64,000 nucleotides of DNA from Pseudoselenomonas ruminantium (GTDB lineage Bacteria > Bacillota > Negativicutes > Selenomonadales > Selenomonadaceae). How positions within the stretch are numbered: the first letter of the stretch is position 1; the number at the start of each line of letters is the position of its first letter. A model generated the notes under the pieces. That model made no database searches. It saw only the letters and a list, made by a program, of their open reading frames with translations, and was not told the DNA's origin. Below, one piece after another: positions 9,228 to 25,775 of this stretch. The stretch is taken from NCBI RefSeq assembly GCF_900142515.1, contig NZ_FRBC01000014.1, positions 1 to 64,000 of the forward strand. The letters are read 5' to 3'. The position numbers were made by a program, and so were the translations under genes.

Positions 9228-10466
9228 TCACGCCCCCTCTCCCAGCAAAGTCCCGGCGTACAGCGAGGACAAACACTCATCATTGAAAAATTCAATCGGG
9301 TTCTTCACCCCCATATCCCGCAGCTGTGCCTCGATCTCCCGATAATAAATATTGCAGATGAAAATCGCGCAATCTGGCGGCAAGGACAGCAAATCCTTTG
9401 GATCATGTACCACCAACCCCGCCACAGAACTCCCCCAAAGCCGGGAATTATTGTCACAGGTGAATAAGGGCGGATATTCTTTGCCATAATTGCTCATATA
9501 ATTACGGCACATCCGCCCTGCCCCGAATAAAACCCGCTTAGGATAGCTGGCCACTGTTTTTTCCATCTCAATCTGCCAGAGAATGTACTGCAGAACCGCT
9601 TGTGCCATTTCCATAAGCTTAGGCCTGAGCAGCGGCGGGAACGCCGCCGCCGTATCCCGCATATCGAGCACCAGCAAGCCATCAAAGGAAATCTCCCGCA
9701 AACTGCGGATGAGATTCAGCCAATCCGTCTCACAGGCCCCTTTGCTGGCACCGGTAAAAGGCAGCAGCTCCCGATCTCCCGTAGCATCGCTGTCACAGAG
9801 AATGACCGCCTTCAGCCTCCCGGACAGGGCATGTAGCAAATCATAAACATTCAGGCCGCAAGCACCACTGGCACCCATATGCAGGCAAAAACCAAAACGC
9901 TCCTCCCCGGCAAAGGCATTCAAACCATCAATAAAATCCACCGTCTCCTCAGCCGACGTAAAACGCCCTCTCACTAAATGGCCATTGATGCTCCGAGCCT
10001 GATTTTCCAACAAAATCACAACCTGCGCCTCCCGGGCCAGCGGAATCAGCCCCTGATAAAACTCGCGGTTCACCTCTATTAACTTATCCGTAGGCATTTC
10101 CGCCATAAAGGGACGCAAAACCAAATACCGGCTGCCCGCTACCTGGCAAAACCTGAGGCTGCGTTCCGCAAAATCCTGATAAACCGCCAGCGAAGGCCAA
10201 TCAGCTGCCCGATAGCCAAAATGCGGGGCATAGGCCAAAGGCAGGCCAAGCTTTTTCTGCTGAAATTTGGAAAGAAAGGTCTCCGCCGCCTGCCATCTTC
10301 CTGCCAGCCAGTTTTCCTCAGCCCCGTTGCGCCGAAATTCCTTAACCGGAAATAACAGCGCGATATCCAGCATGGCCTGTTCAAAAGCAGAACCTGCGAT
10401 ATCCAGTACTCCCTGCCCTGGATATTCCCACGCCGACAGCCCCGCCGGTGCACATAAGATTTCCAT
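9228..10466 (-). CDS. TIM-barrel isomerase-like protein fused to a Rossmann-like domain
   Basis: A 412-aa protein. Residues ~1-300 resemble the same xylose-isomerase-like barrel as its neighbour (ILLENQARSI, FGFCLHMGASGACG, VILCDSDATGD, LVLDMRD), but the metal-site motifs are degenerate: the FDxGHA region reads LHMGAS. Residues ~310-400 are a Rossmann-like domain (VLFGAGRMCRNYMSN, CDNNSRLWGSSVAG, REIEAQLRDMGV). That domain is clearly related to one inside the next upstream protein (VIFGSGLWAQQFMD, VDNQKSRWGKDLRG, VRQLREMGIEDYG). I infer a shared dinucleotide- or sugar-nucleotide-binding module that ties the cassette together. ATG 10466 follows AAGGAG by six bases. Confidence 0.7.
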   Translation of the reverse strand: MEILCAPAGLSAWEYPGQGVLDIAGSAFEQAMLDIALLFPVKEFRRNGAEENWLAGRWQAAETFLSKFQQKKLGLPLAYAPHFGYRAADWPSLAVYQDFAERSLRFCQVAGSRYLVLRPFMAEMPTDKLIEVNREFYQGLIPLAREAQVVILLENQARSINGHLVRGRFTSAEETVDFIDGLNAFAGEERFGFCLHMGASGACGLNVYDLLHALSGRLKAVILCDSDATGDRELLPFTGASKGACETDWLNLIRSLREISFDGLLVLDMRDTAAAFPPLLRPKLMEMAQAVLQYILWQIEMEKTVASYPKRVLFGAGRMCRNYMSNYGKEYPPLFTCDNNSRLWGSSVAGLVVHDPKDLLSLPPDCAIFICNIYYREIEAQLRDMGVKNPIEFFNDECLSSLYAGTLLGEGA

Positions 10467-10469
10467 CGC

Positions 10470-12704
10470 CTACTCCTTCCTGGCCAGCCGCTGATTGATC
10501 ACGGCCTTCAACTTGGTCGAACTGGTCTGCTCCGTATAGGGGAAAAACACCATCGTAGAACCATGCTTTTCCAAAAAATCCTTTTCACTAAGCCAGTACG
10601 GATCATTTTCATAATCACTGCCAGAAAACTGCACATCAAAATGGTACAGATTCCAAGCTTCCCGCGTCCCTGCATAAGTCAGGGGAATCTCATGAGCCTC
10701 ATCCACATATTGGCAGGCCCGCACCAATTCCACCCGCTCATTGAAGGGGATAAAGGGATCAACCCCTTTGTTCTTGCGCACCCCTTCATCGGACACTACG
10801 CCTACAATCAGATAATCACACTGCTCCTTGGCTCGCCGGAACATATTGAGATGACCAATATGATACAAATCGAAGACCCCGGCAATATAGCCGATATGAT
10901 ATTTTTTAGCCTTGGAATCCTTTTTCCCCTCCCCGGATATTGCCACGGTATTCGGCACCACAACCTGCCGAGGTTTCCGCGGATAACTGCGCTGAGGATC
11001 AAAAATGCCATAATCCTCAATCCCCATTTCCCGCAGCTGACGAACCACTGACTGATAGCCTTTGATGCAAATCAGCACTTTGAAGCTGCCAGGCTCCCAC
11101 TGCCGCAACTCGTCCGGAGAGACGATGGGAATGCCCCGCAAATCTTTCCCCCAACGTGATTTTTGATTATCTACCACCATTGACACTGGATGTTCGCGGC
11201 CAAAGCCATCCATAAACTGTTGCGCCCATAGCCCCGAGCCAAAGATCACCAGTTTTTTATCCTCCAGCCCCGCAAAAATATCCACAAACAGCCGCTGATA
11301 TTCCTCCTCGGGATAATTGATCCTCTGCCGATTGGCATAGACCTGCCGCAAATCCCGCTGATGAGGCGCATACACATCATGAAGCTTGCCCAGATTGCGC
11401 AAGTCATTCAGAAACTCATCCGACATCCTCAACCAACGGCCTAAATACTTTGTCAGCCCATAGCGATCGTACATTACCTCTATCGGCAATAACCGTTGCA
11501 TCTCCTTGTCGCTGCCATAAGTAATCCCCACCATCCTGGTCAACAAGACATTGGCAGGATAATTATCAATAGCAAACTCCTGATCGAAGAACATAAACTC
11601 CCCATCGGCAAAAAAAGAATTCAACGGCACCATATCAAAATAGCCCTTTTTCAAGAGCACACCTTCCCCATCCCCAGCATCCTCCCGCACATGCTCAGAA
11701 GAACGCAAGATAAGCTCCGCAAAATGATCCATGGCCCGCAGGAACTGCTCCTGGTCCCGTTTCAATAACTCCCGCAGATAAAAAGTTCCCACCTGTGCCG
11801 TTACAAAAGGCATCTCCAGACGTCCAGCCATAAACTGCGAAGGCACTACCTTGATACCTTGGGCAGACAACGCCTCCATATTGGCCTGTACTGCTCGCAG
11901 ACGCTCTTCTCCCGCCACCGACAAAGGCTTTTTCTCCACCAAATTTTCCGCGTGTATTATTGTATATAAACCATATTTCGGCCCCCGCTCCGCCGAACAA
12001 GTCACATGCTCCACATCCGACAACCGGCCATCCAGCGAACACTCCACCAGATAAGCATTGGCCATGGCATGAAACATCCCATTCTCCAGAAGCATCGGAT
12101 AGAGATTTTCCTCCTCCAAAAAAACTGACTCCGGATGATTGTAGAACGGAAACACTCGCCCCGTCAGATCCTCATTGGGCAGGAAATCCTCCTCAAACAA
12201 AAACGCCGGATGCTCCAGATCCGGTAACACCGAATAAAACCGCATAGCCGTAAAACCAGCAGCCTGCATCCATCGCCGCATCCTACCGCTGCCATACATA
12301 CGCCCTCGGAAAACATCCTCCCGCTTCCCGTAGGCCAGGCGATACCCCTCCAGCCCAGCAAAGGACTGTTCCGTATAAGGGTCTCTGTCCCCACAAAAAT
12401 ACCGCAGCCCGAAAGGATTATTCATAGCCAGAAGCATGCGTCCCTGCGGTACTAAATAACGGGGCAAAGCCACCAATACCGCTCCCGGCTCAGCCAATCG
12501 CTCAAACCCACAATCCGCCAGCAACAAATCAAAACCAGTCTCCTGAAACTGCCCATTCACTATCTGCTCCCAGCTGACACAGGTTACCGTAACACCATCC
12601 GGCCAACAAAACGCCTGTCCCTCTCCCACAAAGAGAATACGCCTGCATCCTGCCATATCATACCAAGCATACAAACTGCGCTTAATCTCATTATATAGGT
12701 CCAT
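10470..12704 (-). CDS. Multidomain protein: methyltransferase-like, kinase-like, Rossmann-like and cytidylyltransferase
   Basis: A 744-aa protein with at least four modules. Residues ~1-165 look like a class I SAM methyltransferase with a weak motif I (ILFVGEGQAF). Residues ~230-440 carry FDMVPLNSFF and FFDQEF near 350-375, which resemble the catalytic loop (DxxxxN) and metal-binding Asp/Glu of choline-kinase-like phosphotransferases. Residues ~479-590 are the Rossmann-like domain shared with the downstream gene. Residues ~604-740 are a nucleotidyltransferase of the glycerol-3-phosphate or phosphocholine cytidylyltransferase type (GVFDLYHIGHLNMF with HxGH, and a TEQTSSTKL end replacing RTxGISTT). 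Only the last assignment is firm. It could make a CDP-activated alcohol for surface decoration. Start ATG 12704 with AAGGTGGGAG upstream. Confidence 0.72.
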   Translation of the reverse strand: MDLYNEIKRSLYAWYDMAGCRRILFVGEGQAFCWPDGVTVTCVSWEQIVNGQFQETGFDLLLADCGFERLAEPGAVLVALPRYLVPQGRMLLAMNNPFGLRYFCGDRDPYTEQSFAGLEGYRLAYGKREDVFRGRMYGSGRMRRWMQAAGFTAMRFYSVLPDLEHPAFLFEEDFLPNEDLTGRVFPFYNHPESVFLEEENLYPMLLENGMFHAMANAYLVECSLDGRLSDVEHVTCSAERGPKYGLYTIIHAENLVEKKPLSVAGEERLRAVQANMEALSAQGIKVVPSQFMAGRLEMPFVTAQVGTFYLRELLKRDQEQFLRAMDHFAELILRSSEHVREDAGDGEGVLLKKGYFDMVPLNSFFADGEFMFFDQEFAIDNYPANVLLTRMVGITYGSDKEMQRLLPIEVMYDRYGLTKYLGRWLRMSDEFLNDLRNLGKLHDVYAPHQRDLRQVYANRQRINYPEEEYQRLFVDIFAGLEDKKLVIFGSGLWAQQFMDGFGREHPVSMVVDNQKSRWGKDLRGIPIVSPDELRQWEPGSFKVLICIKGYQSVVRQLREMGIEDYGIFDPQRSYPRKPRQVVVPNTVAISGEGKKDSKAKKYHIGYIAGVFDLYHIGHLNMFRRAKEQCDYLIVGVVSDEGVRKNKGVDPFIPFNERVELVRACQYVDEAHEIPLTYAGTREAWNLYHFDVQFSGSDYENDPYWLSEKDFLEKHGSTMVFFPYTEQTSSTKLKAVINQRLARKE

Positions 12705-12846
12705 AGCTCCCACCTTGCTTCCCACGTATCAAAAATAATACTCAATTGATAAAATACTTCTATTTTCTCCGCCAAAATCCTGCCAAACAAAGCTGGGAAC
12801 TCATTACATCTTTCATATTATATCTTATAAATATGTTTATTTTATT

Positions 12847-12874
12847 GATTTTATCAGTTATAAATGATAAAATC
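12847..12874. promoter_or_regulatory. Inverted repeat upstream of the DUF4143 ATPase
   Basis: GATTTTATCA and TGATAAAATC are perfect 10-bp arms separated by 8 bp in an AT-rich region ~50 bp before the start codon. The spacing fits a repressor operator overlapping a promoter. No T-run follows, so it is not a terminator. Confidence 0.45.
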
Positions 12875-12922
12875 ATATATAACAACCAATAATAAAAGTA
12901 TATCTAAAAGGATGGTGTTTTT

Positions 12923-14131
12923 ATGATACGTCGTGACTTATACCTGAAAAAAATACGTCCATTCATGAATAAAGAGCTAATAAAGGTCATAACTGGTATC
13001 CGACGTTGCGGAAAATCGGTTATGTTGGAAATCATCCAAAAAGAACTGCTAAAAAACGGTGTGGCCACCGAGGCCATACTTACCTACAATTTTGAATCCT
13101 TAACTTTAGCTCCACTCTGTACTGCCCAAGCCCTGCATCGAGATGTGATGGAAAAATCTAAAGCTATATCTGGGAAGGTCTATCTCTTCTTTGATGAAGT
13201 GCAGGAAGTCAAAGATTGGGAAAAGGCTATCAACTCCTTTCGGGTAGATCTTGATTGCGATATATACATAACTGGCTCAAACTCAAAACTCCTGTCTGGA
13301 GAACTTGCCTCCTATCTGGCAGGACGCTATGTGGAATTTGTTATGTATCCGCTATCATTCCGAGAATTTTTCGACATAATCCATGAGCAACAACCTAACC
13401 TAAACACTGCTGCCTGCTTTCAACAGTATATGATTTATGGCGGCATGCCTTATCTTTGGAACCTCCAGTATCAAGATGAACCTGTCAAGCAGTATCTTTA
13501 CGATCTATACAATGCCATAGAACTAAAGGACATTATCCGCAGGAAAAAATTCCGCGACGTAGACCTATTGGAACGTATTCTTGCCTATGTTACAGCCAAT
13601 ATCGGCAATACTTTCTCTGCCACCACAATCTCTAAGTATCTGAAAAGCGAAGGCCGCAAAGTAGCACCAGAAACCATCTTGAACTATCTCCACGCTGGAA
13701 ATGAGGCCTTCCTGTTCTATCCCGTGAAGCGGCAGGACATTGCCGGCAAGAAAATCCTCAGCGTACAGGAAAAATACTATCTGGCTGATCATGGCATCCG
13801 CGAAGCCGTCATTGGCGGTAATCTAAAGGATATTAACCTCATCCTGGAAAATATCATCTTTTTAGAGCTAAAGCGCCGGGGTTATAAAGTAACCGTAGGC
13901 AAATACGCCGACAAAGAAATCGATTTCATCGCCCAGCGCCAATCTGAACGAATCTACATACAGGTCTGCTACCTTTTGGCTACACCAGAAACTGCTGAAC
14001 GTGAATTTGGCGTATATCGCAATATTCGTGACAACTACCCCAAATATGTGCTTTCCATGGACGAATTTGACATGAGCCAAGATGGCATCATCCACCAGAA
14101 CATCAGAGATTTCCTTTTACAGGAGACTTGA
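12923..14131 (+). CDS. AAA-type ATPase with DUF4143 domain
   Basis: A 402-aa protein of the large family of ATPases often found next to mobile DNA in anaerobes. A Walker A motif, TGIRRCGKSVML, lies near residue 27, and a Walker B-like YLFFDEVQEV near 95 is followed by YITGSNSKLLSGELASYLAG. The C-terminal DUF4143 portion (IRRKKFRDVDLLERILAYV, ILNYLHAGNEAFLFY) ends with a nuclease-like stretch, GKYADKEIDFIAQ (ExDF). Substrate and role are unknown; defence, toxin-antitoxin or DNA-repair functions have been suggested for the family. The start codon is preceded by AAAGGATGG. Base composition is AT-richer than the cassette upstream, in keeping with acquisition. Confidence 0.85.
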   Translation: MIRRDLYLKKIRPFMNKELIKVITGIRRCGKSVMLEIIQKELLKNGVATEAILTYNFESLTLAPLCTAQALHRDVMEKSKAISGKVYLFFDEVQEVKDWEKAINSFRVDLDCDIYITGSNSKLLSGELASYLAGRYVEFVMYPLSFREFFDIIHEQQPNLNTAACFQQYMIYGGMPYLWNLQYQDEPVKQYLYDLYNAIELKDIIRRKKFRDVDLLERILAYVTANIGNTFSATTISKYLKSEGRKVAPETILNYLHAGNEAFLFYPVKRQDIAGKKILSVQEKYYLADHGIREAVIGGNLKDINLILENIIFLELKRRGYKVTVGKYADKEIDFIAQRQSERIYIQVCYLLATPETAEREFGVYRNIRDNYPKYVLSMDEFDMSQDGIIHQNIRDFLLQET

Positions 14132-14208
14132 TACGTAGACCATTTCTTGGTGGCTTCAAATGTTGTCAGGTACAGGGCTTTCAGCAATGCCTGCGAGCTG
14201 GGAAAAAC
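14132..14208 (-). pseudogene. IS256-family transposase fragment
   Basis: Read on the minus strand this encodes VFPSSQALLKALYLTTFEAT followed by KKWS. That is nearly the same as VFPGQQALLKALYLATFEAT in the longer IS256 remnant at 22688-23192. The fragment ends exactly where the IS66 end begins at 14209, which suggests the IS66 element jumped into, or recombined at, an IS256 copy. Confidence 0.75.
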
Positions 14209-14282
14209 GTAAGCGATAAACCATCCGGTGTTATCAATAGCTGAAACGAGCCTGACCATCTATACCTTGGTCAGGCTCATCT

Positions 14283-15765
14283 TTATTTGCAGTTCTGCTG
14301 AACTTCTTTGCTCCAGGGAAGAAAATCTTCCAGCAGTTCAGGATGTATCTTAAAATTTATATTGGGCAGTTTTTCAAACAGATAGGTCAGATAGCGGAAT
14401 GACTCAAGGCCGTTAGCCTTGCTCGTTTCTACAATGCTATACACGGCAGCGCTGGCGGCTGCCCCTTTGGGCGATGCGCTGAACAACCAGTTCTTGCGGC
14501 CAATAGTAAAGTTACGGATGGCGCGTTCGCAAATATTGTTGGATAAAGCAATATTACCGTCCTGCAGAAATACGCTGAGTCCTTTTCTGTGGTTGAGGGC
14601 ATAGTTTACTGCCTTGCCCAGTGCAGATTTTGGCAAGGTTTTGGGCTGGATTCCTTCCAGCCACTTGAAGAAAGCCTCCAGCTTGTCTTTTTCCAGCCGC
14701 AGACGCTCGGACTGCCGTTCTTCGGCAGTCTTATGGGAAAGATCCTTATCCAATGCAAATATTTCGTTGATTTTCCGGATAGCCTGCCCGCTTATGGATT
14801 CGGCTGCTTCTTCCTGAGAAATTCCTGCCGGAATGGCATCTACAAAGTAGCGGCGGGCATGCACCCAACAGAGGGCGTGTTTCTTACAGGAAATCTGCTC
14901 ATAACCGGCATAGCCGTCTGTCTGCAGGATACCCTCATATCCCTCAAGGAACTTTCCGGCAAAGCCGCCGTTCCGGCCGGGATGGTATTCGTAAATCCGG
15001 AGCTGCCGTCCGTCCTGCACGAACTCGCCATTGGTATACACCCACATGTAAGACCTGGTCTTATTCTTCCGTCCTTTTTCATTCAGTACCTGAACGGGCG
15101 TTTCATCTGCATGGATTACCGGCTGTTTCAAGAGTTCTGCATGCATGCAATCTACCAGTGGCATAAGCCAATCTTCTGCTGACCGGATTACCCAGTTGGC
15201 CAGTGTGGCCCGGGAAAGGGCTATTCCAATGGATTTCCATTCCTGTTCCTGACGGTAAAGGGGCATGGAAAACTGGTATTTGTTCTTTTTTCCGGCATTC
15301 CAGGCATTGGAAGGATTCCCGGTAGAAGTCAATGACTTTTACTGTATCAGGAATGAACTGCACCTCCGTACGGATTTTCTCCCGGCCCATGGATGTGAGC
15401 TGTGTCCCGCAACGTTTGCAGATACGCTCATCTTCCGGCAGGGTGATTACGCGTTCTTCATGCGGCATATCTTTCAGAATCTGCTCCAGATGGCCTTTCT
15501 GCTTCTTGCGCCGCTGATGCGCCGGGACTTCTATGACCGGCTCTGGGGCACTACCTTTTGCCTCGACCTCAGCTTCGTCGAAAAGATTGATCTCTTCGAG
15601 CTCGCCAAGAATCTTTTTGGTTTTCTCCGTGCGTGAGCCAAAAGCCATTTTCTTCAATTGAGCAATCTGTTCCTTGAGACAGTCTATTTCATAGCGGAGG
15701 TTTTCCTTCTCCAAGGTCAGTGAATCTATGCGGTTTTGCATTTCTTGTTCGCGGATGTCTGTCAT
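14283..15765 (-). pseudogene. IS66-family transposase TnpC, frameshifted and internally deleted
   Basis: The N-terminal part (15765 to ~15300) has the coiled leader, a QRRKKQKGHLEQIL stretch and zinc-ribbon Cys pairs (ICKRCGTQL, FQCLECRKK). The remainder (LYRQEQEWKSIGIALSRATL, HADETPVQVLNEKGRKN, TDGYAGYEQI, NYALNHRKGLSVFLQDG) is in another frame. At the join, the residues normally between the zinc ribbon and the PLYRQE segment are missing, so a deletion accompanies the frame change near an A-run at ~15298. The gene is inactive unless supplied in trans. Confidence 0.88.
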
Positions 15766-15771
15766 GGAAAA

Positions 15772-16420
15772 CCTCCTGATGACAGACGGCTATGCCGGTT
15801 ATGAGCAGATTCCCTGCAAGGAACATGCTCTCTGCTGGGTGCATGCCCGCCGCTACTTCGTGGATGCTATTCCGGCAGGAATTTCGCAGGAAGAAGCAGG
15901 CGAATCCATAAGTGGACAGGCTATCCGGAAAATCAATGAGCTGTTTGCCTTGGATAAAGAGCTTTCCCATAAGTCTGCTGAAGAACGGCAGGCAGAGCGT
16001 CTGCGGCTTGAAAAAGACAAGCTGGAGGCTTTCTTCGTGTGGCTGGAAAGGATCAAGCCCAAGACTTTGCCAAAATCTGCACTGGGCAAGGCTGTAAACT
16101 ATGCGCTCAACCACAGAAAAGGACTCAGTGTATTTCTGCAGGACGGTAATATTGCTTTATCCAACAATATTTGCGAACGCACCATCCGTAACTTTACTAT
16201 TGGCCGCAAGAACTGGTTGTTCAGCGCATCGCCCAAAGGGGCAACCGCCAGCGCTGCCGTTTACAGCATTGTAGAAACGAGCAAAGCTAACGGGTTAGAG
16301 CCATTCCTTTATCTGACCTATCTATTTGAAAAATTGCCCAATATAAATTTTAAGATACATCCTGAACTGCTGGAAGATTTCCTTCCCTGGAGCAAAGAAG
16401 TTCAGCAGAACTGCAAATAA
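15772..16420 (+). pseudogene. IS66-family transposase TnpC, C-terminal fragment
   Basis: Encodes TDGYAGYEQIPCKEHALCWV and everything downstream to the TnpC end (LPWSKEVQQNCK). It is about 90% alike to the matching part of the minus-strand copy next to it. It starts abruptly at the start codon region of that other copy, with the DDE domain lacking its first acidic residue. The head-to-head arrangement must come from an inversion or from two insertions followed by deletion. Confidence 0.88.
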
Positions 16421-16574
16421 AGATGAGCCTGACCATCTATATCGTGGTCAGGCTCGTTTCAGCTATCGATAACACCGGATGGTTTATCGCTTACTGAAAA
16501 TCGTCTTTGTTTCTTTCGCTTTTTGATTTTTAACTTTCCCTTTATGTCATTGAAAAAAATTGCAGTAAATAAAT

Positions 16575-19088
16575 CTACATAAGATTTTTCTTTTTCAGGA
16601 ACTTTACTGTATATTCTCTAATTAAATCGTCTTTTCTTAATCTATATTCTTTTAATAGTTTATCAATTTCCGTTGGAAACAGACTGATGCCACTTTGGCA
16701 TAATGCAGAATAAAAATCTCGTACATTTTTCCTTAATTTTTCTAATTCATTCTCTGTTACCACAACCATTTTTTCATGCGGTGAGGCAGCATCATCTATT
16801 ATCTTGGATGGATGTATGATAATTGGCCAACCAGTATTGTATTTTGAGTAATTCTCCCTGAACCAATTTACAGATCCTGATAATTGATTGCAATAATCTT
16901 TCGTTATAAAATCAACTTTCGACTCAGATTTGCATTCTATAATAAAATACGTATCAGCATCTATAGCCCATAAGTTATCTGGTCCATATCCTCCTGTACA
17001 CTTATCAGGCCTAGAACACGTAAAGCCTAATGCTTCTCCTACAGAATTACATGACATCTCAAATTTTTCATATTCACTGCCAATATATAAATTAGAAAGT
17101 ATTCCATCTATCTCTATTAACAGTTCATTAGGCGACAGTTTACATGAGTCTAAATATTTTTTTATCATTTGCGCTTGTGATATATTGTTTATTGTCTTAT
17201 CATATTGTATTCCACCAATAGGATTTAAAATCGCTCCACTAATTTTTTTCCCAGCTGTCAATATTTGTTGTGACATTACCGCATCATATTTATTTGTATA
17301 TTCGGCTTGCACTTGACACAAATAACCTTTCGTTGTAGAAATAGTTTCTATATCTTTTATTTTTTTCACGCATTCAGAAGCATCTTTCCACTGTCTATTA
17401 AGTGAGCACTCAAAAGCTTTTCTCAAAGCCACAATCTTGTAATCCACGTTTGCGACGCACGAATACCTTATAGCAGATAATCGCTCCTTACATTTAGATA
17501 TCCACACAGGATTCTTTTCCAATGAGTATCTAGCAAGTTCAAAAATATCATCCAAAGATGGTTTTCCCTCACTGTCCTCAACAAGTATATCCCATAATTC
17601 TTTTGATAAGTCGTACTGACATTTTGTAGCAGAACTAAAGAAGTCAACACCTTTATTTCTAGCCAACACATCAGTAAGTTCATCCCCCATAAGCACAACG
17701 CAACATTCATCATCATTAGATCGAATCCCTCTCCCCATCCCTTGTTCTATCCTTTGAATCTGTTCTCGTAACAAGATTATGCTTTTAGGTGCAACACTTT
17801 GTATATACCGATCTTTTATACTGTTAAGTGGAGGCAGTCCATCAATTACTAACATCCTACAGGTTTCATCAGGCAAATCAACTCCGTCATATCGATTTAC
17901 AAACACTACTTTTCCAAAGTGACCTCCTTTTTTCAAATTTCCTACTACATCACTAATATTATCTTTTTCCACAGTACATTTAGAGTCAGGATCCCAAAAC
18001 TTAGCTCTACTAAACGATGGAACAATTACTACAACATTATATTTTCTTGCTATCTCTTCAACTTTTTCTTTTATATCATTTTCTGTGATATCACTATTTA
18101 TGTACTTAGGAAAAATAATAAGCCTGTCACCTATATCATTAGCATTTTCTGGTGTCACAATATTTTGCATATCATCCATATCTAGTCCTAGCGAAGTAAC
18201 AAACACACTATCATCTGCTAGAGTTGCACTCATGAATATTCTACGCTCAGCACCCGCAAAACTTTCTATTTTATTTATATCTACCCCCTTGGGAGATATC
18301 TCTATACATCTGGGTGTTATTATACAATCACAAGTATCCAAACCTCCTTCTATTAAAGGCAACCCAAAAAAGATATCAGGATTATCTTCGTTACTGTGTT
18401 TTACCAAAATTCTATATACATCTTCTTGCTTTTTTTGCCATTCCCAAAAAGGTACCAATAGTATCTCTCTGGAATCCCTCATCTCTATCACATCTATGTA
18501 TTTTTTGGGATTATAATCCTTTAAATAAGCTCCAAACAATTTTATTAATTCGTCATATTGATTAGTTCCATATTTAATTTTAATCATAAATTGACCTGCA
18601 ATCTTATCTATACCAGCATGAACATCATCTATAACAAGACTTCCTATGGGATAATTATTATTTTTTCTCATACCGAAAGCACTATGTCCATTGACAATGG
18701 TTTGAATTGTCGTAATCAATATAGCTTTTGAATTTAAATAATTATAGTCATCTTTATCATCTGTAACAGTCACACCAAGCTTTTTAGCTTCTTCTAAAAC
18801 TTGATTTACCAAGAATTTATCCGGGACTGCATATACGGCAGGCCCCTTCCCCTCATTTAGACAACTTTGAAGAATTATCAATCCAACAGTTGTCTTACCA
18901 CTTCCAGTATTCATTTTTACAATTACATTTTTTTCATTTCTTAAATCGAACCATTTCTTCCAAACTTCACTTTGAACATCTCTAGGATATCCAAAACCAG
19001 GCGCCTTAGTAGGCAATGACATAAATATTTCTCTTGGCTTTATAGTTTTTACTTTTTCACGAGAATTCAGTCTTGACAAAATATTCAT
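16575..19088 (-). CDS. Superfamily 2 helicase with a C-terminal nuclease-like domain (putative defence)
   Basis: An 837-aa protein. Helicase motifs are in order: Walker A VKMNTGSGKTTVG near residue 60, motif II LVIDDVHAG near 155, motif III-like RRIFMSATLADD near 290, and motif VI QRIEQGMGRGIRSNDDE near 455. The C-terminal part holds DNLWAIDADTYFIIECKSES, which fits a PD-(D/E)xK nuclease core (D...ExK). The DNA is clearly AT-rich against its neighbours. The next gene upstream is a DUF4263 nuclease, a nuclease-helicase pairing that recalls anti-phage systems such as Hachiman. The start is the ATG at 19088 with GGAGAGGAG upstream. If the intron above it is spliced after AAT, an in-frame start at the ATGATG of exon 1 (20370-20375) is also possible. 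Confidence 0.82.
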   Translation of the reverse strand: MNILSRLNSREKVKTIKPREIFMSLPTKAPGFGYPRDVQSEVWKKWFDLRNEKNVIVKMNTGSGKTTVGLIILQSCLNEGKGPAVYAVPDKFLVNQVLEEAKKLGVTVTDDKDDYNYLNSKAILITTIQTIVNGHSAFGMRKNNNYPIGSLVIDDVHAGIDKIAGQFMIKIKYGTNQYDELIKLFGAYLKDYNPKKYIDVIEMRDSREILLVPFWEWQKKQEDVYRILVKHSNEDNPDIFFGLPLIEGGLDTCDCIITPRCIEISPKGVDINKIESFAGAERRIFMSATLADDSVFVTSLGLDMDDMQNIVTPENANDIGDRLIIFPKYINSDITENDIKEKVEEIARKYNVVVIVPSFSRAKFWDPDSKCTVEKDNISDVVGNLKKGGHFGKVVFVNRYDGVDLPDETCRMLVIDGLPPLNSIKDRYIQSVAPKSIILLREQIQRIEQGMGRGIRSNDDECCVVLMGDELTDVLARNKGVDFFSSATKCQYDLSKELWDILVEDSEGKPSLDDIFELARYSLEKNPVWISKCKERLSAIRYSCVANVDYKIVALRKAFECSLNRQWKDASECVKKIKDIETISTTKGYLCQVQAEYTNKYDAVMSQQILTAGKKISGAILNPIGGIQYDKTINNISQAQMIKKYLDSCKLSPNELLIEIDGILSNLYIGSEYEKFEMSCNSVGEALGFTCSRPDKCTGGYGPDNLWAIDADTYFIIECKSESKVDFITKDYCNQLSGSVNWFRENYSKYNTGWPIIIHPSKIIDDAASPHEKMVVVTENELEKLRKNVRDFYSALCQSGISLFPTEIDKLLKEYRLRKDDLIREYTVKFLKKKNLM

Positions 19089-19110
19089 AATTAAATTTAC
19101 TCCTCTCCAA

Positions 19111-20369
19111 GTAACATTCGAAGAAAACTCCTCCAAGAACCGTATGTGCAGTTTTCCCGCATACGGCTCCCCACATTCACTTCAAACATATATCAGTTAT
19201 AGATTATTCCGCCTCGTGCCCATATGTTTACATGGATATAAGGCTTCTTAATTTTCTCAGACCAGACTTCCGTAAACGTTTCCCATTTACATACAGAAAT
19301 CCAAGAAAATCAAACGTCGCCTTTGCTTTATTGTTCCTGCCAAACGGCAGGATTCTCGTCTTGTCTTCCGCTAATTCCAGTCCAAATTTTGCCATTCTCA
19401 CTTTTAGTGCTTCATAGACGGCTTAGGCTTCATTCTTATATTCTGTCATAATGATAAAATCATCTGCATATCTTACAAGATATGATTCCCCCTTCAACTG
19501 TCGCTTCCTGCACTTTTCAAACCATAAGTCCAGCACATAATGCAGGTGCACCTTTGCCAGTACTGGCGATATTATCCCGCCCTGTGGCGTTCCTACACGT
19601 GTGTTTTCATAATGGTTTGATTCCATGACTCCCGCTTTCAAAAATCTTACGATATACCTCAGAAAAATCTTGTCTGCGATGTCATGTTCCAGAAATTTCA
19701 TGAGCCATTTATGCTCTACTGTGTCAAAGAATCCTTTAATGTCACAGTCCAGTATGTAATTTACCTTCTTGAACATTATCAAATTGTCAACCTGCTTAAT
19801 GACATCATGGGCGCTTTTATTTGACCTGAAACCATAGGAACAATCAATAAATCTCGGCTCATATACTTCATTGAGTATTCTCGCCATTCCCCCTTGCACA
19901 AGTTTGTCTTCGTAGCTCGGTATCCCCAAAGGTCTTTTCTCTCCGTTGGCTTTTGGTATATATGCCCTGCGGACTAGTTGTGGCCTGTAGGAAAACCTTT
20001 TCATCCTGCGTAGCAGGTCGTTCAGATTTTCCCCATATTCCGCTCTCGTTACTTTATCCACTCCGACAGCTTTTACGTTTACCTGTCTCCTATGCTCCGC
20101 TGCAAGCGTTTCATAATTAATGCCCCATACCCAATTTGCTAGATAGTTTGTGCTGGTTGCGACCACGATGAGGGTATCACCCACCGTCTTGTCAGTATTA
20201 ACGACGCTAAATTGATTCAGGCTTACGCTTTAGAGCTCTACGTCTTTCCTGCCTACGCTTAACGTGTTGCCTCACGACAACACGCCCAAGGCTGGATAAT
20301 GACTCCTCGCTAGGGTTTGCCGTGGCAGGAGTTCCACCTACCTATACTTACTGCACCGAACTTGCGCAC
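19111..20369 (-). mobile_element. Degenerate group II intron
   Basis: The 5' end GTGCGCAAG matches the GUGCG consensus. Domain V is unmistakable near the 3' end (19137-19169): GAGCCGTATGCGGG, a four-A turn, CTGCACATACGGTTC. The exon before it ends in ATGATG. The segment CATCGT near 20165, about 200 nt into the intron, can pair with this, as EBS1 pairs with IBS1. The 3' end is at 19116 (AAT) or 19111 (GTTAC, which would place a branch-point A seven bases back). At ~1.25 kb it is about half the usual size because the encoded protein is truncated. It separates the DUF4263 gene from the helicase. Confidence 0.88.
19228..20184 (-). pseudogene. Group II intron reverse transcriptase (LtrA-like), truncated with a nonsense codon
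   Basis: Reverse-transcriptase blocks are present: RRAYIPKANGEKRPLGIPSY, a GFRSNKSAHDVI segment, DCDIKGFFDTVEH, GTPQGGIISPVLA and the catalytic YADD in LVRYADDFIIM. A TAA at 19423-19425 interrupts the frame just after YADD. Reading on recovers KTRILPFGRNN and FDFLGFLYVNG before a second stop at 19228. The maturase (X) and endonuclease domains are missing. Without a helper maturase this copy cannot move. The first ~15 residues of the longest reading overlap the EBS1 region, so the real start was probably further in. Confidence 0.88.
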
Positions 20370-20409
20370 CATCATAGCACCTCCTCTTCATCAAATATAA
20401 TCATTAAAA

Positions 20410-21048
20410 TTAAGGGACATTATCCATAGGATAATCAAAGTGAACAGACGTATCATTTATTAAAGTATCATAATGATACCTATCAAAAGGGAAATTATGA
20501 AACCTCATTTGTTCAATTCTTTTTTCACATTCAACCAATCTATCATATGTGATTATTTGAATTCGATTATCTTCTTCCTCCGCTATTCTAGCTCTATCCT
20601 CTTTACTCAAACTATTCCTTCTACCTATAATGATAACTTGACTAATAATAAATCTTCTGCAGAAATCAAATTTATCATAAAAATCACAATTCTGCTTACG
20701 TATTGAGTCATAAAGCAATTTACGAAAGCATTCCATATTTTCGTTTATCCATATCTTCCATTCTTTAACTTGGCGCATAGCTATATTTAAGTATTTCGCA
20801 TAACCCCCATTTTTTGTAAATATCACTCTTGTTGCTGCTTCTAATTCAACTAATGTGATCCAATAACTACTTGACTGTCCTGTAAACACTAAAAAGTCGC
20901 TTTGATATTTTCCACCAAAGCTAAACTTAGGAATTACAAAATTATAGGCATATTCAGGAACTCCTAATGTTGCCATCAGAATTTTGTTATGGTCTTCTAG
21001 ATACTTTTGTAAAGTCTCTTCATTTTTACCTAAAATTTCCTCTATCAT
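20410..21048 (-). CDS. DUF4263 (Shedu SduA C-terminal-like) nuclease domain protein
   Basis: A 212-aa protein matching the DUF4263 pattern: KYQSDFLVFTGQ...YWITLVELEAA (the D...ExE/ExK nuclease core, with Glu where Lys is usual), then AMRQVKEWKIWINEN and a C-terminal IIIGRRNSLSKEDR...IQIITYDRLVE. In Shedu defence proteins this domain cuts DNA; here there is no long N-terminal sensor domain. It is followed at once by the helicase gene (interrupted only by the group II intron), so I infer a two-gene nuclease-helicase system. The ELE form of the active site is seen in relatives but may matter for activity. Start ATG 21048 with AAAGGCGGGG upstream; 21066 is an alternative. Confidence 0.78.
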   Translation of the reverse strand: MIEEILGKNEETLQKYLEDHNKILMATLGVPEYAYNFVIPKFSFGGKYQSDFLVFTGQSSSYWITLVELEAATRVIFTKNGGYAKYLNIAMRQVKEWKIWINENMECFRKLLYDSIRKQNCDFYDKFDFCRRFIISQVIIIGRRNSLSKEDRARIAEEEDNRIQIITYDRLVECEKRIEQMRFHNFPFDRYHYDTLINDTSVHFDYPMDNVP

Positions 21049-21152
21049 GTTTCCCCGCCTTTCCATAATGTCAAGTCTTCAAACATTTATCACCTTTTTG
21101 CTTATCAATATAGTTGTCTACCTTATGACAGCCATATTGAATACCAGCAACA

Positions 21153-21457: not shown

Positions 21458-21836
21458 CTATACTTCTATATATTCTCCAACTTGCCTTTCAATACATTCT
21501 ATCGCGTCTCCAAACTGCCATGCCCGTGTCCATTCTGCTATCATATTCACAGCCTCGTGAATATGTATTTTAGGCTTCCAACCAAGTTTGCTTTTTATTA
21601 GTTACGTATCAATCTTCAGAAAATTAGCCTCATGTGGTGCATCCAATTCCCTCGTTACCTTAAATTTAAATCCATCGCCCCAAGCGTTTGTAAAAATCTT
21701 TGCAAGCTCACCTGTAGATACACAATCGCAGTCATCCGGCCCCACATTATACCAGCCATATAAATTATAATTCTTCACCTGACAAGATTGCAATCATAAG
21801 ATATGCAAAAAGTGATTCCCAAACATGCTGATAGGC
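21458..21836 (-). pseudogene. CDP-glucose 4,6-dehydratase C-terminal remnant
   Basis: Scattered frames spell the RfbG C-terminus: YQHVWESLFAYLMIA, then YNVGPDDCDCVSTGELAKIF, a PHEANFLKID segment, an in-frame TAA, and LGWKPKIHIHEAVNMIAEWT. It is cut at its 5' side by the IS66 remnant and carries at least one frameshift and a nonsense codon. It would have made a CDP-6-deoxy-hexose precursor for O-antigen. Confidence 0.8.
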
Positions 21837-22175
21837 AGTGATTTTTTGTACGGCTTTGGGCTGCGAAATGGATAAGCCTTCGGTAAGCCAGCGAAGCTGC
21901 TGCTCGGAAATTTCCAGCAGGTCTTCCGGCGTGTCCGGCCATTGATACTGACCATTTTCTAAGCGCTTATAGAGAAGCAGAAATCCTGTCTCATCCCATA
22001 GCAGTCCCTTGATGCGGTCTTTACGGCGGCCGCAGAAAAGGAACAAAGCCGGCTGATGCGGATCTAGTTGAAATTTCGACAGCACCAGCGCGGCAAGACC
22101 GTCGATGGACTTACGCATATCTGTCCGGCCGCACGCCAGATAGACATGCTCTGCCGTAAGATTGCGGATTAGCAT
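21765..22175 (-). pseudogene. IS66-family TnpB, C-terminus replaced
   Basis: Residues 1-113 are a typical IS66 Orf2/TnpB (YLACGRTDMRKSIDGLAALV, LFLFCGRRKDRIKGLLWDET, FLLLYKRLENGQYQWP). After KAVQKIT at ~21837 the frame runs into the dehydratase remnant, so the last ~23 residues are foreign. The ATG at 22175 overlaps the tnpA stop. TnpB is an accessory protein of IS66 transposition whose biochemical role is not well defined. Confidence 0.85.
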
Positions 22176-22686
22176 ACCGGAAACACTTCCTTGATACAAA
22201 CTAGCGTTCTGGTAAGCAATTCGCTCGATGTTTGCTCATTGACTTCTAAGCTTACAGGACCACAGGCAAGTTTCAGCCTGGAGGGCAGCGTTGAGGCCTG
22301 AACTGTAGTCGTAACGGTAGCAGTTGCCAACGTAGCAAATTCAGGAGCAGGCTCATCCTTTGGGGTGATCTGGAGTGCAGCTGCCGCAAAATCTTCGCGG
22401 ATTTTGCGTTGCCAATAGTAAAAGGCATTGTACTTGATATTTTGCTGGCGGCAATATTCTGCGGCAGTAAGCCCGCTGTTCTGTTGGGCAAGGATGATCT
22501 GTTTCCAGGATGCTAGGGAATGTTGCTGCTTGAGCTATTGAATTTTGAGTCAAAACCAAAACCTCCCAGACAATTTTTGACTAAAATGGCTTTTTCACGT
22601 TTTTCAGCTTTTTCGTGTGGCTTCTTTTAGTCAATTATCTCATCTGGGAGGGAAATTTTAAATACACCGGATTATTGGGCGGTTAC
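21837..22686 (-). mobile_element. IS66-family element remnant (tnpA-tnpB part)
   Basis: The left end of the element is GTAACCGCCCAATAATCCGG on the minus strand (22667-22686), abutting an IS256 transposase fragment. It is followed by tnpA and tnpB and then stops inside the dehydratase remnant with no tnpC. An imperfect inverted repeat (CCTCCCAGA...TCTGGGAGG, 22562-22656) lies in the upstream region. Confidence 0.8.
22169..22534 (-). pseudogene. IS66-family TnpA (helix-turn-helix), start lost
   Basis: The frame reads LKQQHSLASWKQIILAQQNS, GLTAAEYCRQQNIKYNAFYY and WQRKIREDFA, then a Thr/Ala-rich linker to VCIKEVFPVC at the tnpB overlap. This is the usual TnpA DNA-binding protein. A TAG sits directly before the Leu codon at 22534 and there is no start codon, so the gene is broken at its 5' end. 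Confidence 0.82.
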
Positions 22687-22687
22687 G

Positions 22688-23192
22688 GCTTACCGGCCTG
22701 AAAGAGGCCATTTCTGCAGCATTTCCGAAAACGGAGCACCAGCGCTGCATTGTCCACATGGTGCGCAATACACTGAAATACGTCGCCAACAAAGACATGA
22801 AAAATTTTGCCAAAGATCTCCGCACCATCTATACCGCCCCTGATGAGAAGGCCGCCGTTAAGCGGCTGGAGGAAGTGGACAAAAAATGGACGCCCCATTA
22901 TCCAGCGGCACTGAAGCGTTGGTTTGACAATTGGGATGTAATAACGCCAATATTCAAGTTCTCAACAGACGTCCGTACCGCGTTTTACACGACCAATGCC
23001 ATTGAGAGCCTAAATTCCTCATACCGCCGTCTGAACAGCCAGAGAAGTGTTTTCCCCGGCCAACAGGCCCTGCTAAAGGCGTTGTATTTGGCAACGTTTG
23101 AAGCTACCAAGAAATGGTCCATACCCATCCGAAACTGGGGCAAAGTAAGGGGCGAACTGACCATTATGTACCCTGATAGATTACAACCGTAA
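22688..23192 (+). pseudogene. IS256-family transposase, C-terminal half
   Basis: The frame reads LTGLKEAISAAFPKTEHQRC, IVHMVRNTLKYVANKDMK, AFYTTNAIESLNSSYRRLNS and FPGQQALLKALYLATFEATK to the end of the protein. These are the IS256 (MULE-like DDE) transposase C-terminal blocks, including the last catalytic Glu in NAIESLN. The N-terminal half is missing; the left edge is the end of the neighbouring IS66 element, which therefore inserted into this gene. Confidence 0.88.
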
Positions 23193-23285
23193 AATACATC
23201 CATGCTGAAATCATAGAAGACCTTTTACAGACTTTTATTCACACCCTCGAAAAAGCATGACCTTGTTTGAGGCCATGCTTTTTCA

Positions 23286-24050
23286 TTTGCAGTTTTTCTG
23301 AAATTCTTCATTCCAAGGAAGCAGCTCCCGGCTCTTCAGGGTGGATTTTGAAATTCATGTTGGGCATCCGTTCAAACAGATATACCAGATTTTTGAACGG
23401 GGCAATGCCATTGGCTTGGCAGGTTTCAACCACGCTGTAGACGGCAGCGCTGGCCGCAGCTCCTTTCGGCGAGGCCGAAAATAGCCAGTTCTTGCGTCCG
23501 ATGGTGAAGCTTCGGATAGCACGTTCACAGATATTGTTGGACAGGGCGGCATTGCCGTCATTCAGATATATGCTGAGTCCTTCCCTATGGTTGAGGGCAT
23601 AATTCACGGCTTTGCCAAGTGCAGATTTCGGTAGCGTGCCGGGCTGTACCTTTTCAAGCCATACGAAAAAAGCCTCCAGCTTGTCTTTTTCAAGCCGTAG
23701 ACGTTCCTGCTGCCGTTCTTCGGGCGTTTTGTCTGCCAAGGTTTCCAGGGCAAGCAGCTCTTTTATTCTCTTGACGGCCTGGCCGCTGATGGAAGTGTCT
23801 GCTTCTTCCTGTTTCAGGTCAGGGGGCAGTGCCTCCACAAAGTACCTGCGGGCATGGGCCCAGCATAGTGCATGGGCACGGGGCAGGCAACCTGCTCATA
23901 GCCGGCATACCCATCTGTTAGGAGAGTTCCCTTGTATCCTTTCAGGTATGCATATGGTCCACCAGCGGCACAAGCCAATCTTGTGCAGATCGTATGACCC
24001 AGTTGGCTAAAGTGGCCCTGGGTAGTGCGATGCCGATGGACTTCCGTTAC
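23286..24050 (-). pseudogene. IS66-family transposase TnpC, deleted and frameshifted (second lineage)
   Basis: Matches to TnpC are spread over three frames: TDGYAGYEQV near 23900, SALGKAVNYALNHREGLSIY, a NNICERAIRSFTIGRKNWLF stretch and PWNEEFQKNCK at the end. A large internal deletion removes most of the DDE core between ~23940 and 24000. It differs enough from the copies at 14283-16420 to be a separate IS66 type. A GAAAAAGCATGRCC hairpin (23250-23284) follows the stop codon, as in other IS66 ends. Confidence 0.82.
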
Positions 24051-24052
24051 AA

Positions 24053-24424
24053 TTAACTGATTTGTTTGGCTAGTTCTGCAATTCGTTCAGGACTAGGGCG
24101 GGAGTATTTTATAATCTCATCCATAGGTTTGTTGTCGCGAAGCATATCAATAGCCATGGAAGTACGTTCTTCGAGACGACCTTCAAGTCGCTCTTCAGCG
24201 CGCCCCTCGGCACGCCCTTCCTCCTGTAATGTTTGCATTATTTTACACACAGTGTTACCCCCCTCTTTTTTATGCTTGAAAAAATCGGCTCGTTCAGTCA
24301 GTTCTGAATAGTGCATTTTTGCTGGATCAGCGCAGAAGAAATCTTGCATGAGCAACCCTAATGCATCTATTCCTCTGTAGGTTCCGTTTATATAGATGGT
24401 GTGAGCAGCATCGTCCTTTCTATA
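24053..24424 (-). pseudogene. Rpn/PD-(D/E)xK-type transposase-associated nuclease, C-terminal fragment
   Basis: The frame opens at YRKDDAAHTIYINGTYRGID, then ALGLLMQDFFCADPAKMHYS, ELTERADFFKHKKEGGNTVC, a Glu/Arg-rich repeat GRAEGRAEERLEGRLEER and a short C-terminal helix. This matches the C-terminal third of Rpn-family recombination-promoting nucleases (PDDEXK transposase family). The catalytic N-terminal part is absent, so the fragment is not expected to be active. Confidence 0.78.
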
Positions 24425-24548
24425 TTATGACAAGGGAGTTTGGTGATAAAAATATTATTCAGAAAAACATTTGTTTTTCATGGATATCATACCATAGATT
24501 TGAATTTTTGTATATTGAGAATGGATTTTATTACTGGGAGGTCTATAT

Positions 24549-24635
24549 ATGTATGATTATCTAATCGTTGGCAGTGGTTTTGCTGGCGTTTATAATATAA
24601 GTGAGAAAATGTTTGACTTTAGCCTAAATTTATAG
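24549..24635 (+). pseudogene. UDP-galactopyranose mutase, N-terminal stub
   Basis: After GGGAGG and a 7-nt spacer, ATG begins MYDYLIVGSGFAGVY, the dinucleotide-binding start of Glf (usual MYDYLIVGSGLFG). The frame leaves the family at residue ~16 and stops after 28 codons. Glf makes UDP-galactofuranose for O-antigen, so this stub supports the view that the island was once a surface-polysaccharide locus. Confidence 0.65.
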
Positions 24636-24675
24636 TGTCATAATAATTTCCTATTACGCCTTGTGCAATGCAACA

Positions 24676-24704
24676 TTGAGATTTTCTTCTATTTTCGCTA
24701 TAAT
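24676..24704 (+). promoter_or_regulatory. Promoter of the tat-ubi operon
   Basis: TTGAGA and TATAAT with a 17-bp spacer, 43 bp before the tatA start codon. Confidence 0.75.
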
Positions 24705-24746
24705 GTATAGGTGTGAAAAAGATTAACGGTTTTAGGAGGAATTATC

Positions 24747-24965
24747 ATGATTAGTCCATATACTGCAGGTGCGCTGGTGCTCGTTGCTTTGATCGTGTTT
24801 GGACCGAGCAAGCTGCCGGAGATTGGCAAGGCTTTGGGAAAGGGTATCAAGGAGTTCAAGTCCGGTGTGGTTGAGGAAAGCAAGAAGCCGGAAGAGCAGC
24901 AGATGATGAACGTGACCGAGCAGCCGAAAGAACTGCCTAAGGCTGACCAGCAGACGAAGCAGTAA
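24747..24965 (+). CDS. tatA: Twin-arginine translocase subunit TatA
   Basis: A 72-aa protein with one N-terminal membrane helix ([13 protein letters not shown]) followed by the conserved [20 protein letters not shown] amphipathic segment and a short charged tail. TatA subunits form the pore-like assembly that carries folded proteins across the inner membrane. It precedes tatC by 13 bp. The window encodes at least one likely client, the twin-arginine 5'-nucleotidase at 36115-37932. TatA versus TatE naming cannot be separated by sequence; no TatB is nearby, as in many Firmicutes that use a TatAC system. Confidence 0.95.
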
Positions 24966-24978
24966 GCTGGTGGTGTAG

Positions 24979-25752
24979 ATGGCAGAAGAACAAAAATATG
25001 AAGAAATCGAGGCGCCAAAACAGATTGGCGCCCCGGCAGATGCCGAAGTGGTGCTGGATGATGGCAGCATGTCCCTGATTGCCCATCTGACCGAACTTCG
25101 CAGCCGTCTCATCAAATGTCTGGTGGCTACGGCGCTGGGAAGTTGTGTCGGTTATTTCTATATTCAGGAAATCATGCACTACATCACCCTGCCCGCGGGC
25201 AAGCTTTACTATATGCAGCCTGCGGAAGCCTTCTTCACTTATCTGAAGGTGGCCTGTGTGGCCGGGTTCCTCTTGGCACTGCCCATTATCTTTTGGCAGG
25301 TATGGCGGTTTTTCCTGCCGGCCCTGACCACCAGGGAACGCATGGTGCTTGGTATCGTGGTACCGACATCAGTCGTTCTTTTTTTCTGTGGGCTGGCTTT
25401 TTCCTTTTTCCTGGTATTGCCAGCGGGCATCAAGTTTTTCTTGGGCTTCGGCAATACGGAGCTGGAGGCATTATTATCCGTAAACAAGTACTTTGACTTT
25501 GTCATCATGTTTGTGCTGCCCTTTGGCTTTATCTTTGAATTGCCTTTGGTCATGACCATCATGGGTAAGCTGGGGTTGATTACGTCTGCTTTCCTCAAGA
25601 AGTATCAGCGGATTATCATCTTCCTGTCTTTCGTGGTGGGGGCAATCATCACGCCGACACCGGATGTGTTCACTCAGTCCATGATTGCCTTGCCAATCAT
25701 TGTACTCTATGAAGTAGGTTATTTTATTGTTCGTTATATTTTACGCAGATAA
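24979..25752 (+). CDS. tatC: Twin-arginine translocase subunit TatC
   Basis: A 257-aa polytopic membrane protein, the receptor for twin-arginine signal peptides. Typical marks are SLIAHLTELRSRLIKCLVAT at ~35-55, several membrane helices, the FFLPALTTRERMVLG loop, FEFLPL-like GFIFELPLVMTIMGKLGL, and a conserved ending with ITPTPDVFTQSMIALPIIV. The ~30-residue charged N-terminal extension before the first helix is longer than in enteric TatC. The ribosome-binding site is weak (GGTGG), so it may depend on translation of tatA just upstream. Confidence 0.95.
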   Translation: MAEEQKYEEIEAPKQIGAPADAEVVLDDGSMSLIAHLTELRSRLIKCLVATALGSCVGYFYIQEIMHYITLPAGKLYYMQPAEAFFTYLKVACVAGFLLALPIIFWQVWRFFLPALTTRERMVLGIVVPTSVVLFFCGLAFSFFLVLPAGIKFFLGFGNTELEALLSVNKYFDFVIMFVLPFGFIFELPLVMTIMGKLGLITSAFLKKYQRIIIFLSFVVGAIITPTPDVFTQSMIALPIIVLYEVGYFIVRYILRR

Positions 25753-25775
25753 GCTGGTAAAGAGGAGGTAATTGC

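What the first reader, a model, noticed from the sequence alone, without database searches (positions are those of the whole stretch)
16575..21048. Putative two-gene nuclease-helicase defence system, DUF4263 plus SF2 helicase/nuclease
A short Shedu-like DUF4263 nuclease with an ELE core is followed by an 837-aa SF2 helicase carrying its own ECK nuclease-like motif. The pair is AT-rich, sits in an island of broken mobile elements, and is spaced as an operon if the group II intron is ignored. Pairings of a small nuclease with a large helicase occur in Hachiman-like defence, but the DUF4263-helicase combination with two potential nuclease sites is not one I recognise.
Basis: partly seen in the sequence, partly recalled or inferred. 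Interest (0 to 1): 0.68.

Follow-up and report, generated by a model that had tools for sequence, protein, structure and literature searches.

The report
Hna phage-defence gene beside a mini-Shedu
The supposed new two-gene nuclease-helicase defence system looks like an ordinary copy of the known single-gene anti-phage protein Hna lying next to a small Shedu-type nuclease gene, with a damaged group II intron between them; the two genes were not found paired elsewhere.

Summary
On the minus strand lie a 212-218 aa SduA-domain (DUF4263) protein, a degenerate group II intron, and an 837-aa SF2 helicase with a C-terminal ECK motif, in an AT-rich island of transposase pieces. The two-gene interpretation fails. 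The helicase is Hna, a known single-gene abortive-infection helicase-nuclease: full-length match to the solved Hna chain (E 3e-115) and to PADLOC PDC-S28 (E 5e-287); Hna structures are its top fold matches. Its ECK lysine (K720) aligns with Hna K729, needed for the exonuclease. The small protein belongs to the Shedu SduA family, in a subgroup with ExE instead of ExK. No SduA was found beside Hna in 29 other Hna loci; 1 of those 29 genomes or replicons has SduA_C at all. In a 397-genome sample 9 have Hna, 9 SduA_C and 1 both, on different contigs. Best reading: two independent, horizontally acquired defence genes side by side. Interest is low. Leftovers: an intron in the hna leader and a conserved ExE Shedu subgroup.

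The parts
16575..19088 (-). hna: 837-aa SF2 helicase with C-terminal PD-(D/E)xK nuclease (Hna, PADLOC PDC-S28)
   Evidence: PDC-S28 E 5.3e-287 over 20-849; solved chain 10uj/9yhn/9ykj E 3.2e-115 over 19-846; numbering of the 853-aa ORF. 10UJ and 9YKJ are named as Hna in PMC13381803, 9yhn and 9ykj in the fold library
18891..18905 (-). Walker A (GSGKT) of Hna, residues 62-66
   Evidence: GKT kept in 28 of 28 aligned rows
16929..16937 (-). ECK (E718-K720) of the Hna nuclease domain; K720 aligns with S. meliloti K729
   Evidence: ExK kept in 28 of 28 rows; mapping; K729A abolishes exonuclease activity in PMC13381803
19111..20369 (-). group II intron, about 1259 nt, between the two genes and upstream of the hna start
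   Evidence: RF02005 at 20085-20334, RF00029 at 19059-19171 just below its gathering score. The 3' end ...GTTAC is where a second remnant at G000:C26 stops matching. The 5' end GTGCG is read by eye against the recalled group II consensus
19423..20184 (-). broken reverse transcriptase of the intron
   Evidence: RVT_1 E 7.2e-27; one TAA inside, the only RVT_1 match in the genome at E <= 0.001
20410..21066 (-). short SduA_C (DUF4263) protein, 218 aa; 212 aa if it starts at ATG 21048, as a G-rich ribosome-binding-like stretch suggests
   Evidence: Pfam SduA_C E 3.7e-19 over 14-178; PADLOC SduA best E 8e-27
20839..20847 (-). ELE (E74-E76, 218-aa numbering) at the place of the PD-(D/E)xK E-x-K
   Evidence: aligned with A-I-K of the solved SduA chain 8ti9 (weak profile match, E 0.0018); ExE in 14 of 17 SduA_C rows aligned
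14283..16420 (.). IS66 transposase pieces on the hna side (14283-15332 minus, 15728-16420 plus)
   Evidence: DDE_Tnp_IS66 E 1.5e-89 and 4e-45
21765..23838 (.). IS66 Orf2, Mutator-family transposase piece, IS66 piece on the sduA side

Best explanation
Two independent phage-defence genes acquired horizontally and parked side by side. (1) The helicase is Hna. By homology it is kept inactive as an ATP-bound dimer. A phage single-stranded-DNA-binding protein, or a similar phage factor, releases it. Its C-terminal nuclease (PD, ECK) then degrades single-stranded DNA 3' to 5', and the infected cell dies or stops before phage are released. (2) The small protein is a Shedu-family nuclease with an ExE variant site, needing no helicase partner. 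The group II intron inserted between them, in the leader of hna, and its reverse transcriptase has decayed; hna keeps its own ribosome-binding-like site and start. Shown here: family membership, motif conservation, lack of pairing in the samples, intron position. Inferred from published Hna work: trigger, ATP control, exonuclease, abortive infection. Inferred only: that the SduA is active and independent, and that the island was acquired horizontally.
For: Hna: full-length PDC-S28 match E 5.3e-287; phmmer to the solved Hna chain E 3.2e-115 over 828 residues; PDB codes tied to Hna; the model's first three fold matches are Hna monomer E 1.7e-56 and dimer chains E 1.2e-39 and 2e-21. Motifs across 28 rows: GKT 28, DDxH 27, PD 28, ExK 28. 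Pairing not found: 0 of 29 Hna loci and 0 of 8 SduA loci; 1 of 29 Hna-bearing genomes or replicons has SduA_C; in a 397-genome family sample 9 Hna, 9 SduA_C (8 over the cut-off), 1 with both, on different contigs and with an ExK-type SduA; 0.2 expected by chance. Hna is described as a single-effector system. Foreign origin: GC 32-40% against 42-57% around; in 100 relatives, own included, a full-length Hna occurs in 2 (own, and one of the same class), plus one 130-residue general helicase match at E 2e-5.
Against: The two genes are on one strand with a 62-nt gap once the intron is discounted, so co-transcription is plausible. No relative of the small protein above 34% identity was seen, so whether its closest relatives sit beside hna could not be tested. 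Two replicons or genomes do hold both families: a Niallia plasmid, 21 kb apart, and genome G516, on different contigs. Of the five 67-68% homologues, L005 has only 0.6 kb upstream. The S. meliloti dimer-loop residues T30, D31, P34 are A29, P30, Y34 here, so the same autoinhibitory contact cannot be assumed. Nothing was tested at the bench.
Confidence: 0.9

Rival explanations
1. A true two-component operon: the short SduA, which has no sensor domain of its own, is recruited by Hna, which senses phage SSB or ssDNA and brings a second nuclease.
For: Same strand, 62-nt gap without the intron; the SduA has no separate N-terminal domain (SduA_C covers 14-178 of 218); the two genes lie in one AT-rich stretch.
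Against: 0 of 29 Hna loci carry an SduA neighbour and 0 of 8 SduA loci carry Hna; Hna is described as acting as a single protein in S. meliloti; short SduA genes without a helicase neighbour are on a Vibrio plasmid (214 aa) and a Sebaldella plasmid (248 aa).
Confidence: 0.05
2. Hachiman-like HamA-HamB system.
For: Small nuclease followed by a large SF2 helicase; weak HamB hits.
Against: HamB models cover only 65-67 residues at E 3e-4 to 0.03, against 5e-287 full length for PDC-S28; no HamA match for the small protein up to E 1; the helicase has its own nuclease domain.
Confidence: 0.01
3. Dead relics: one or both genes are no longer functional, the broken elements and the intron marking decay.
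For: The transposases around are pieces and the intron RT is broken; the SduA lacks the lysine of ExK, and a lysine change (K557A) in the nuclease of V. cholerae SduA abolished protection (passage of PMC12137116).
Against: Both reading frames are open; the Hna motifs inspected are kept; ExE is conserved in 14 of 17 aligned SduA_C proteins, with D57, Q99 and W103 kept in those 14, so it is not a private mutation.
Confidence: 0.04

Closest known systems
Hna of Sinorhizobium meliloti (PDB 10UJ, 9YHN, 9YKJ; PADLOC PDC-S28)
   Same: Full-length collinear, helicase motifs, C-terminal PD/ECK nuclease, no SduA beside it in the relatives examined
   Different: 30% identity; dimer-loop residues T30, D31, P34 not kept; a group II intron in the leader; an SduA gene upstream
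Shedu SduA (DUF4263, Pfam SduA_C)
   Same: SduA_C nuclease domain; D57, E74 and Q99 invariant in the eight sequences aligned, this one included
   Different: Short, without a separate N-terminal sensor domain; ExE in place of ExK, shared by a subgroup
Hachiman HamAB
   Same: Small nuclease gene plus large SF2 helicase gene, in gene order only
   Different: Neither protein is a HamA or HamB by the PADLOC models

Membership tests
Hna (helicase-nuclease abortive infection) | full-length homology to Hna, about 845 aa | tested here: met
   E 3.2e-115 over 19-846; PDC-S28 E 5.3e-287; first three fold matches are Hna chains, though the model is only moderate (mean pLDDT 65.7, pTM 0.39; TM-score 0.54 to the monomer)
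Hna (helicase-nuclease abortive infection) | SF2 helicase motifs (GKT, DDxH, QxxGR) | tested here: met
   window protein and 27 homologues: GKT 28 of 28, QxxGR 28 of 28, DDxH 27 of 28, the exception being L051
Hna (helicase-nuclease abortive infection) | C-terminal PD-(D/E)xK nuclease with the catalytic lysine K729 | tested here: met
   P703-D704, E718-C-K720; K720 aligns with K729
Hna (helicase-nuclease abortive infection) | single-gene system, no obligate partner | tested here: met
   for SduA only: 0 of 29 Hna loci have one in the stretch; annotated or listed neighbours differ between loci (whose output was cut in the middle, and 40-49, 51; one search had no annotation)
Hna (helicase-nuclease abortive infection) | homodimer loop T30/D31/P34 | tested here: not met
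   A29, P30, Y34 in this protein; the loop is variable in the 28 rows. A contact of the S. meliloti protein, not used to define the family
Hna (helicase-nuclease abortive infection) | 3'-5' ssDNA exonuclease, ATP inhibition, SSB-triggered abortive infection | not testable with these tools
   bench work
Hna (helicase-nuclease abortive infection) | no iron-sulphur cluster, reduced Arch domain | not tested
   stated for S. meliloti Hna in PMC13381803
Shedu (SduA) | SduA_C / DUF4263 nuclease domain | tested here: met
   69.9 bits against cut-off 27
Shedu (SduA) | canonical E-x-K catalytic motif | tested here: not met
   E74-L-E76; ExE in 14 of 17 aligned SduA_C rows, ExK in 3. Nine of the 17 are this protein or were picked by similarity to it; of the other eight, picked by the Pfam model, 5 are ExE
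Shedu (SduA) | N-terminal sensor or clamp domain | tested here: not met
   SduA_C begins at residue 14 of 218; N-terminal clamp of EcSduA from a passage of PMC12904381. Other short forms exist
Hachiman | HamA and HamB | tested here: not met

The most novel reading that the evidence does not exclude
A group II intron in the leader of hna makes expression of this dose-sensitive defence gene depend on intron folding or splicing, and the upstream sensor-less ExE-type SduA works as an accessory nuclease of Hna in one operon.
Probability: 0.04. Interest if true: 0.5.

Novelty: new member of a known kind. Interest (0 to 1): 0.15.

Why it matters
It removes a false lead: the helicase belongs to a published single-gene system and the pairing looks local. 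It adds an Hna whose closest kin found here are in Lachnospiraceae to a lineage where Hna is rare (full length in 2 of 100 relatives, own included). It also shows that many SduA_C proteins carry a conserved ExE site, which bears on how those Shedu nucleases cut.

Tried and rejected
Hachiman and a conserved SduA-Hna pair were considered and rejected. Searches that gave nothing: viral contigs with either protein; phage records with the SduA (Hna had one match there, in a 501-kb Salmonella record). The fold of the SduA from its single sequence failed (mean pLDDT 33.3), so its fold rests on sequence profiles alone. The scan for promoters and terminators found about what shuffled sequence gives. 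The Shedu paper PMC11805627 is not held, so whether its authors describe the ExE subgroup is not known to me.

Rows dropped: the motif table leaves out 2 of the 29 Hna loci, L008 (reading frame broken, a near copy of L006) and L042 (cut by an IS3 transposase). One of the 29, L064, is a distant Hna-like protein (22.5% identity). The Hna and SduA loci were checked with at most about 1.5 kb of flank (0 of 9 Hna loci with SduA; 0 of 8 SduA loci with Hna); one, L072, is the same gene as L006; they are not added to the 29 and 8. L089 (below the Pfam cut-off) is not in the 17 rows.

Full report
What is there. On the minus strand, in the order of transcription: a 218-aa ORF (20410-21066; 212 aa from the better-placed ATG at 21048), a group II intron (19111-20369), and an 837-aa ORF (19088-16575). 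In 1-kb steps GC is 32-40% from 16000 to 20999, against 44-52% from 9000 to 15999 and 42-57% from 22000 to 27999. IS66 and Mutator-family transposase pieces lie on both sides.

The helicase. PADLOC model PDC-S28 matches the whole protein at E 5.3e-287. A search of solved structures gives one strong chain, E 3.2e-115 over 828 residues; the other two matches are general helicases at E 0.005 and 0.15. The data-availability passage of PMC13381803 gives 10UJ and 9YKJ as Hna monomer and dimer. Of that paper I saw the abstract and outline, that passage, the introduction, part 1 of 3 of the results, and the discussion. A model built with nine homologues is only moderate (mean pLDDT 65.7, pTM 0.39; the nuclease end is the best part), yet its first three fold matches are Hna chains (TM-score to the monomer 0.54, rmsd 14.7), ahead of XPD and DinG helicases. 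In an alignment of 28 rows (the window protein and 27 homologues, from 27 of the 29 loci below), GKT, QxxGR, the PD of the nuclease and ExK are kept in all 28 and DDxH in 27; K720 aligns with S. meliloti K729, whose change to alanine abolishes the exonuclease. The residues of the S. meliloti dimer contact (T30, D31, P34) are A29, P30 and Y34 here, in a loop that varies over the 28 rows, so that contact may differ.

The small protein. It matches Pfam SduA_C at 69.9 bits (cut-off 27) over residues 14-178, and PADLOC SduA models. It has no room for a separate N-terminal sensor domain of the kind described for EcSduA (passage of PMC12904381). Relatives found are 20-34% identical: 13 plasmid records, of which I opened those of Vibrio, Sebaldella, Niallia and Rhodococcus (one record each), and four genes of the same phylum. 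None of these eight opened loci has an Hna. In 17 aligned SduA_C rows, 14 have E-x-E with Q-x-x-[DE]-W and 3 have E-x-K without that W. Nine of the 17 are this protein or were picked by similarity to it; of the eight picked by the Pfam model alone in another family of bacteria, five have ExE and three ExK. In the solved SduA chain (8ti9, a weak profile match, E 0.0018) the aligned place reads A-I-K. In V. cholerae SduA, K557A in the nuclease abolished protection (passage of PMC12137116), so ExE is a real departure; but it is a conserved variant, not a private decay. BamHI has an ExE site too (recalled, not from a call). Whether this is in print for Shedu I could not check: the main paper is not held, and one full-text search on SduA/Shedu/BamHI terms showed nothing to the point in its listing of 8 of 512 papers.

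Do they form a pair? None of the 29 has an SduA in the stretch, by a profile of nine SduA sequences and by the window SduA itself, up to E 1. Flanks were mostly 4-7 kb, but L005 and L009 have only 0.6 and 1.6 kb upstream, and L010 and L007 only 0.4 and 2.8 kb downstream. At the level of whole genomes (17) or plasmid records (12), 1 of the 29 has SduA_C: a Niallia plasmid, 21 kb from its hna and with the SduA split over two frames. In 397 genomes of the family of the Lachnoanaerobaculum locus L006, 9 have Hna at E up to 1e-30 (two of them distant, about 1e-35, and two with stops inside) and 9 have SduA_C (8 over the cut-off). One, G516, has both, on different contigs, its Hna being one of the distant two and its SduA of the ExK type; chance gives 0.2. 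In 398 genomes of the phylum, 5 (own included) have a relative of the small protein and 17 match the helicase at E up to 0.001, of which 7 (own included) below 1e-30. Only the window's own genome is on both lists at that level; G102 has an SduA relative and a weak, 74-residue helicase match (E 5e-4). The two draws bear the same handles where shown; the unlisted genomes could not be compared. The limit of this test: no close relative (above 34%; identities of the proteins were not computed) of the small protein was found, so a pairing confined to its near kin would be missed.

The intron. RF02005 scores 74.9 bits; RF00029 matches domain 5 well and scores 39.7 bits, 0.3 below the gathering score. 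The 3' end, GTTAC, is fixed by a second remnant elsewhere in the genome that stops matching just there. The RT has an in-frame TAA, and no other RVT_1 match at E up to 0.001 is in the genome, so the intron is probably immobile; whether it still splices is open. It lies 22 nt upstream of the hna start and leaves the ribosome-binding-like stretch with hna. An abstract passage of PMC12445080 says that a moderate difference in hna expression is enough to change resistance in S. meliloti (passages only seen), so the insertion could matter for dose.

How it most likely works. By homology Hna is held as an ATP-bound dimer; a phage SSB releases it; the nuclease removes single-stranded DNA from 3' ends; the cell aborts the infection (PMC13381803). 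The SduA is a separate nuclease, probably also against phage. Their neighbourhood fits the known gathering of defence genes in islands (general knowledge).

Verdict. Observation confirmed; the new two-gene system is not supported. Known kinds, new members; low interest.

Noticed in passing
window 19111-20369 (-): Group II intron between two defence genes, 22 nt upstream of the hna start, with a broken RT; the only RVT_1 match in the genome, plus a short 3' remnant on another contig (G000:C26:13695-13778).
   Followed up: partly
window 20839-20847 (-); L081-L088: SduA_C proteins split into an ExE type with Q-x-x-[DE]-W and an ExK type without that W (14 and 3 of 17 rows); the active site of the ExE type is worth a structural look.
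   Followed up: partly
L045 / L054 (Niallia circulans plasmid NZ_CP053316.1): hna and an SduA gene split over two frames, 21 kb apart on one plasmid.
   Followed up: partly
L048 (Lactococcus lactis plasmid pMRC01): Full-length Hna homologue (about 30% identity) on pMRC01, a plasmid long known for an abortive-infection trait (recalled); might be the gene behind it.
   Followed up: no
L052 (Vibrio diabolicus plasmid NZ_CP014093.1): Short SduA gene of 214 aa lying between two copies of the IS30-family element ISVa6, like a composite transposon.
   Followed up: no
L006 4222-4890 (+): 222-aa ORF of unknown kind just upstream of hna in a Lachnoanaerobaculum genome; not an SduA by the profile.
   Followed up: no
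window 6683-6840 (-): Two identical tandem tRNA-Thr(CGT) genes.
   Followed up: no
window 4685-4803 (-): Molybdenum/tungsten cofactor riboswitch (RF01055, 57.4 bits).
   Followed up: no
window 12923-14131 (+): AAA_14/DUF4143 ATPase gene of 402 aa at the edge of the island.
   Followed up: no
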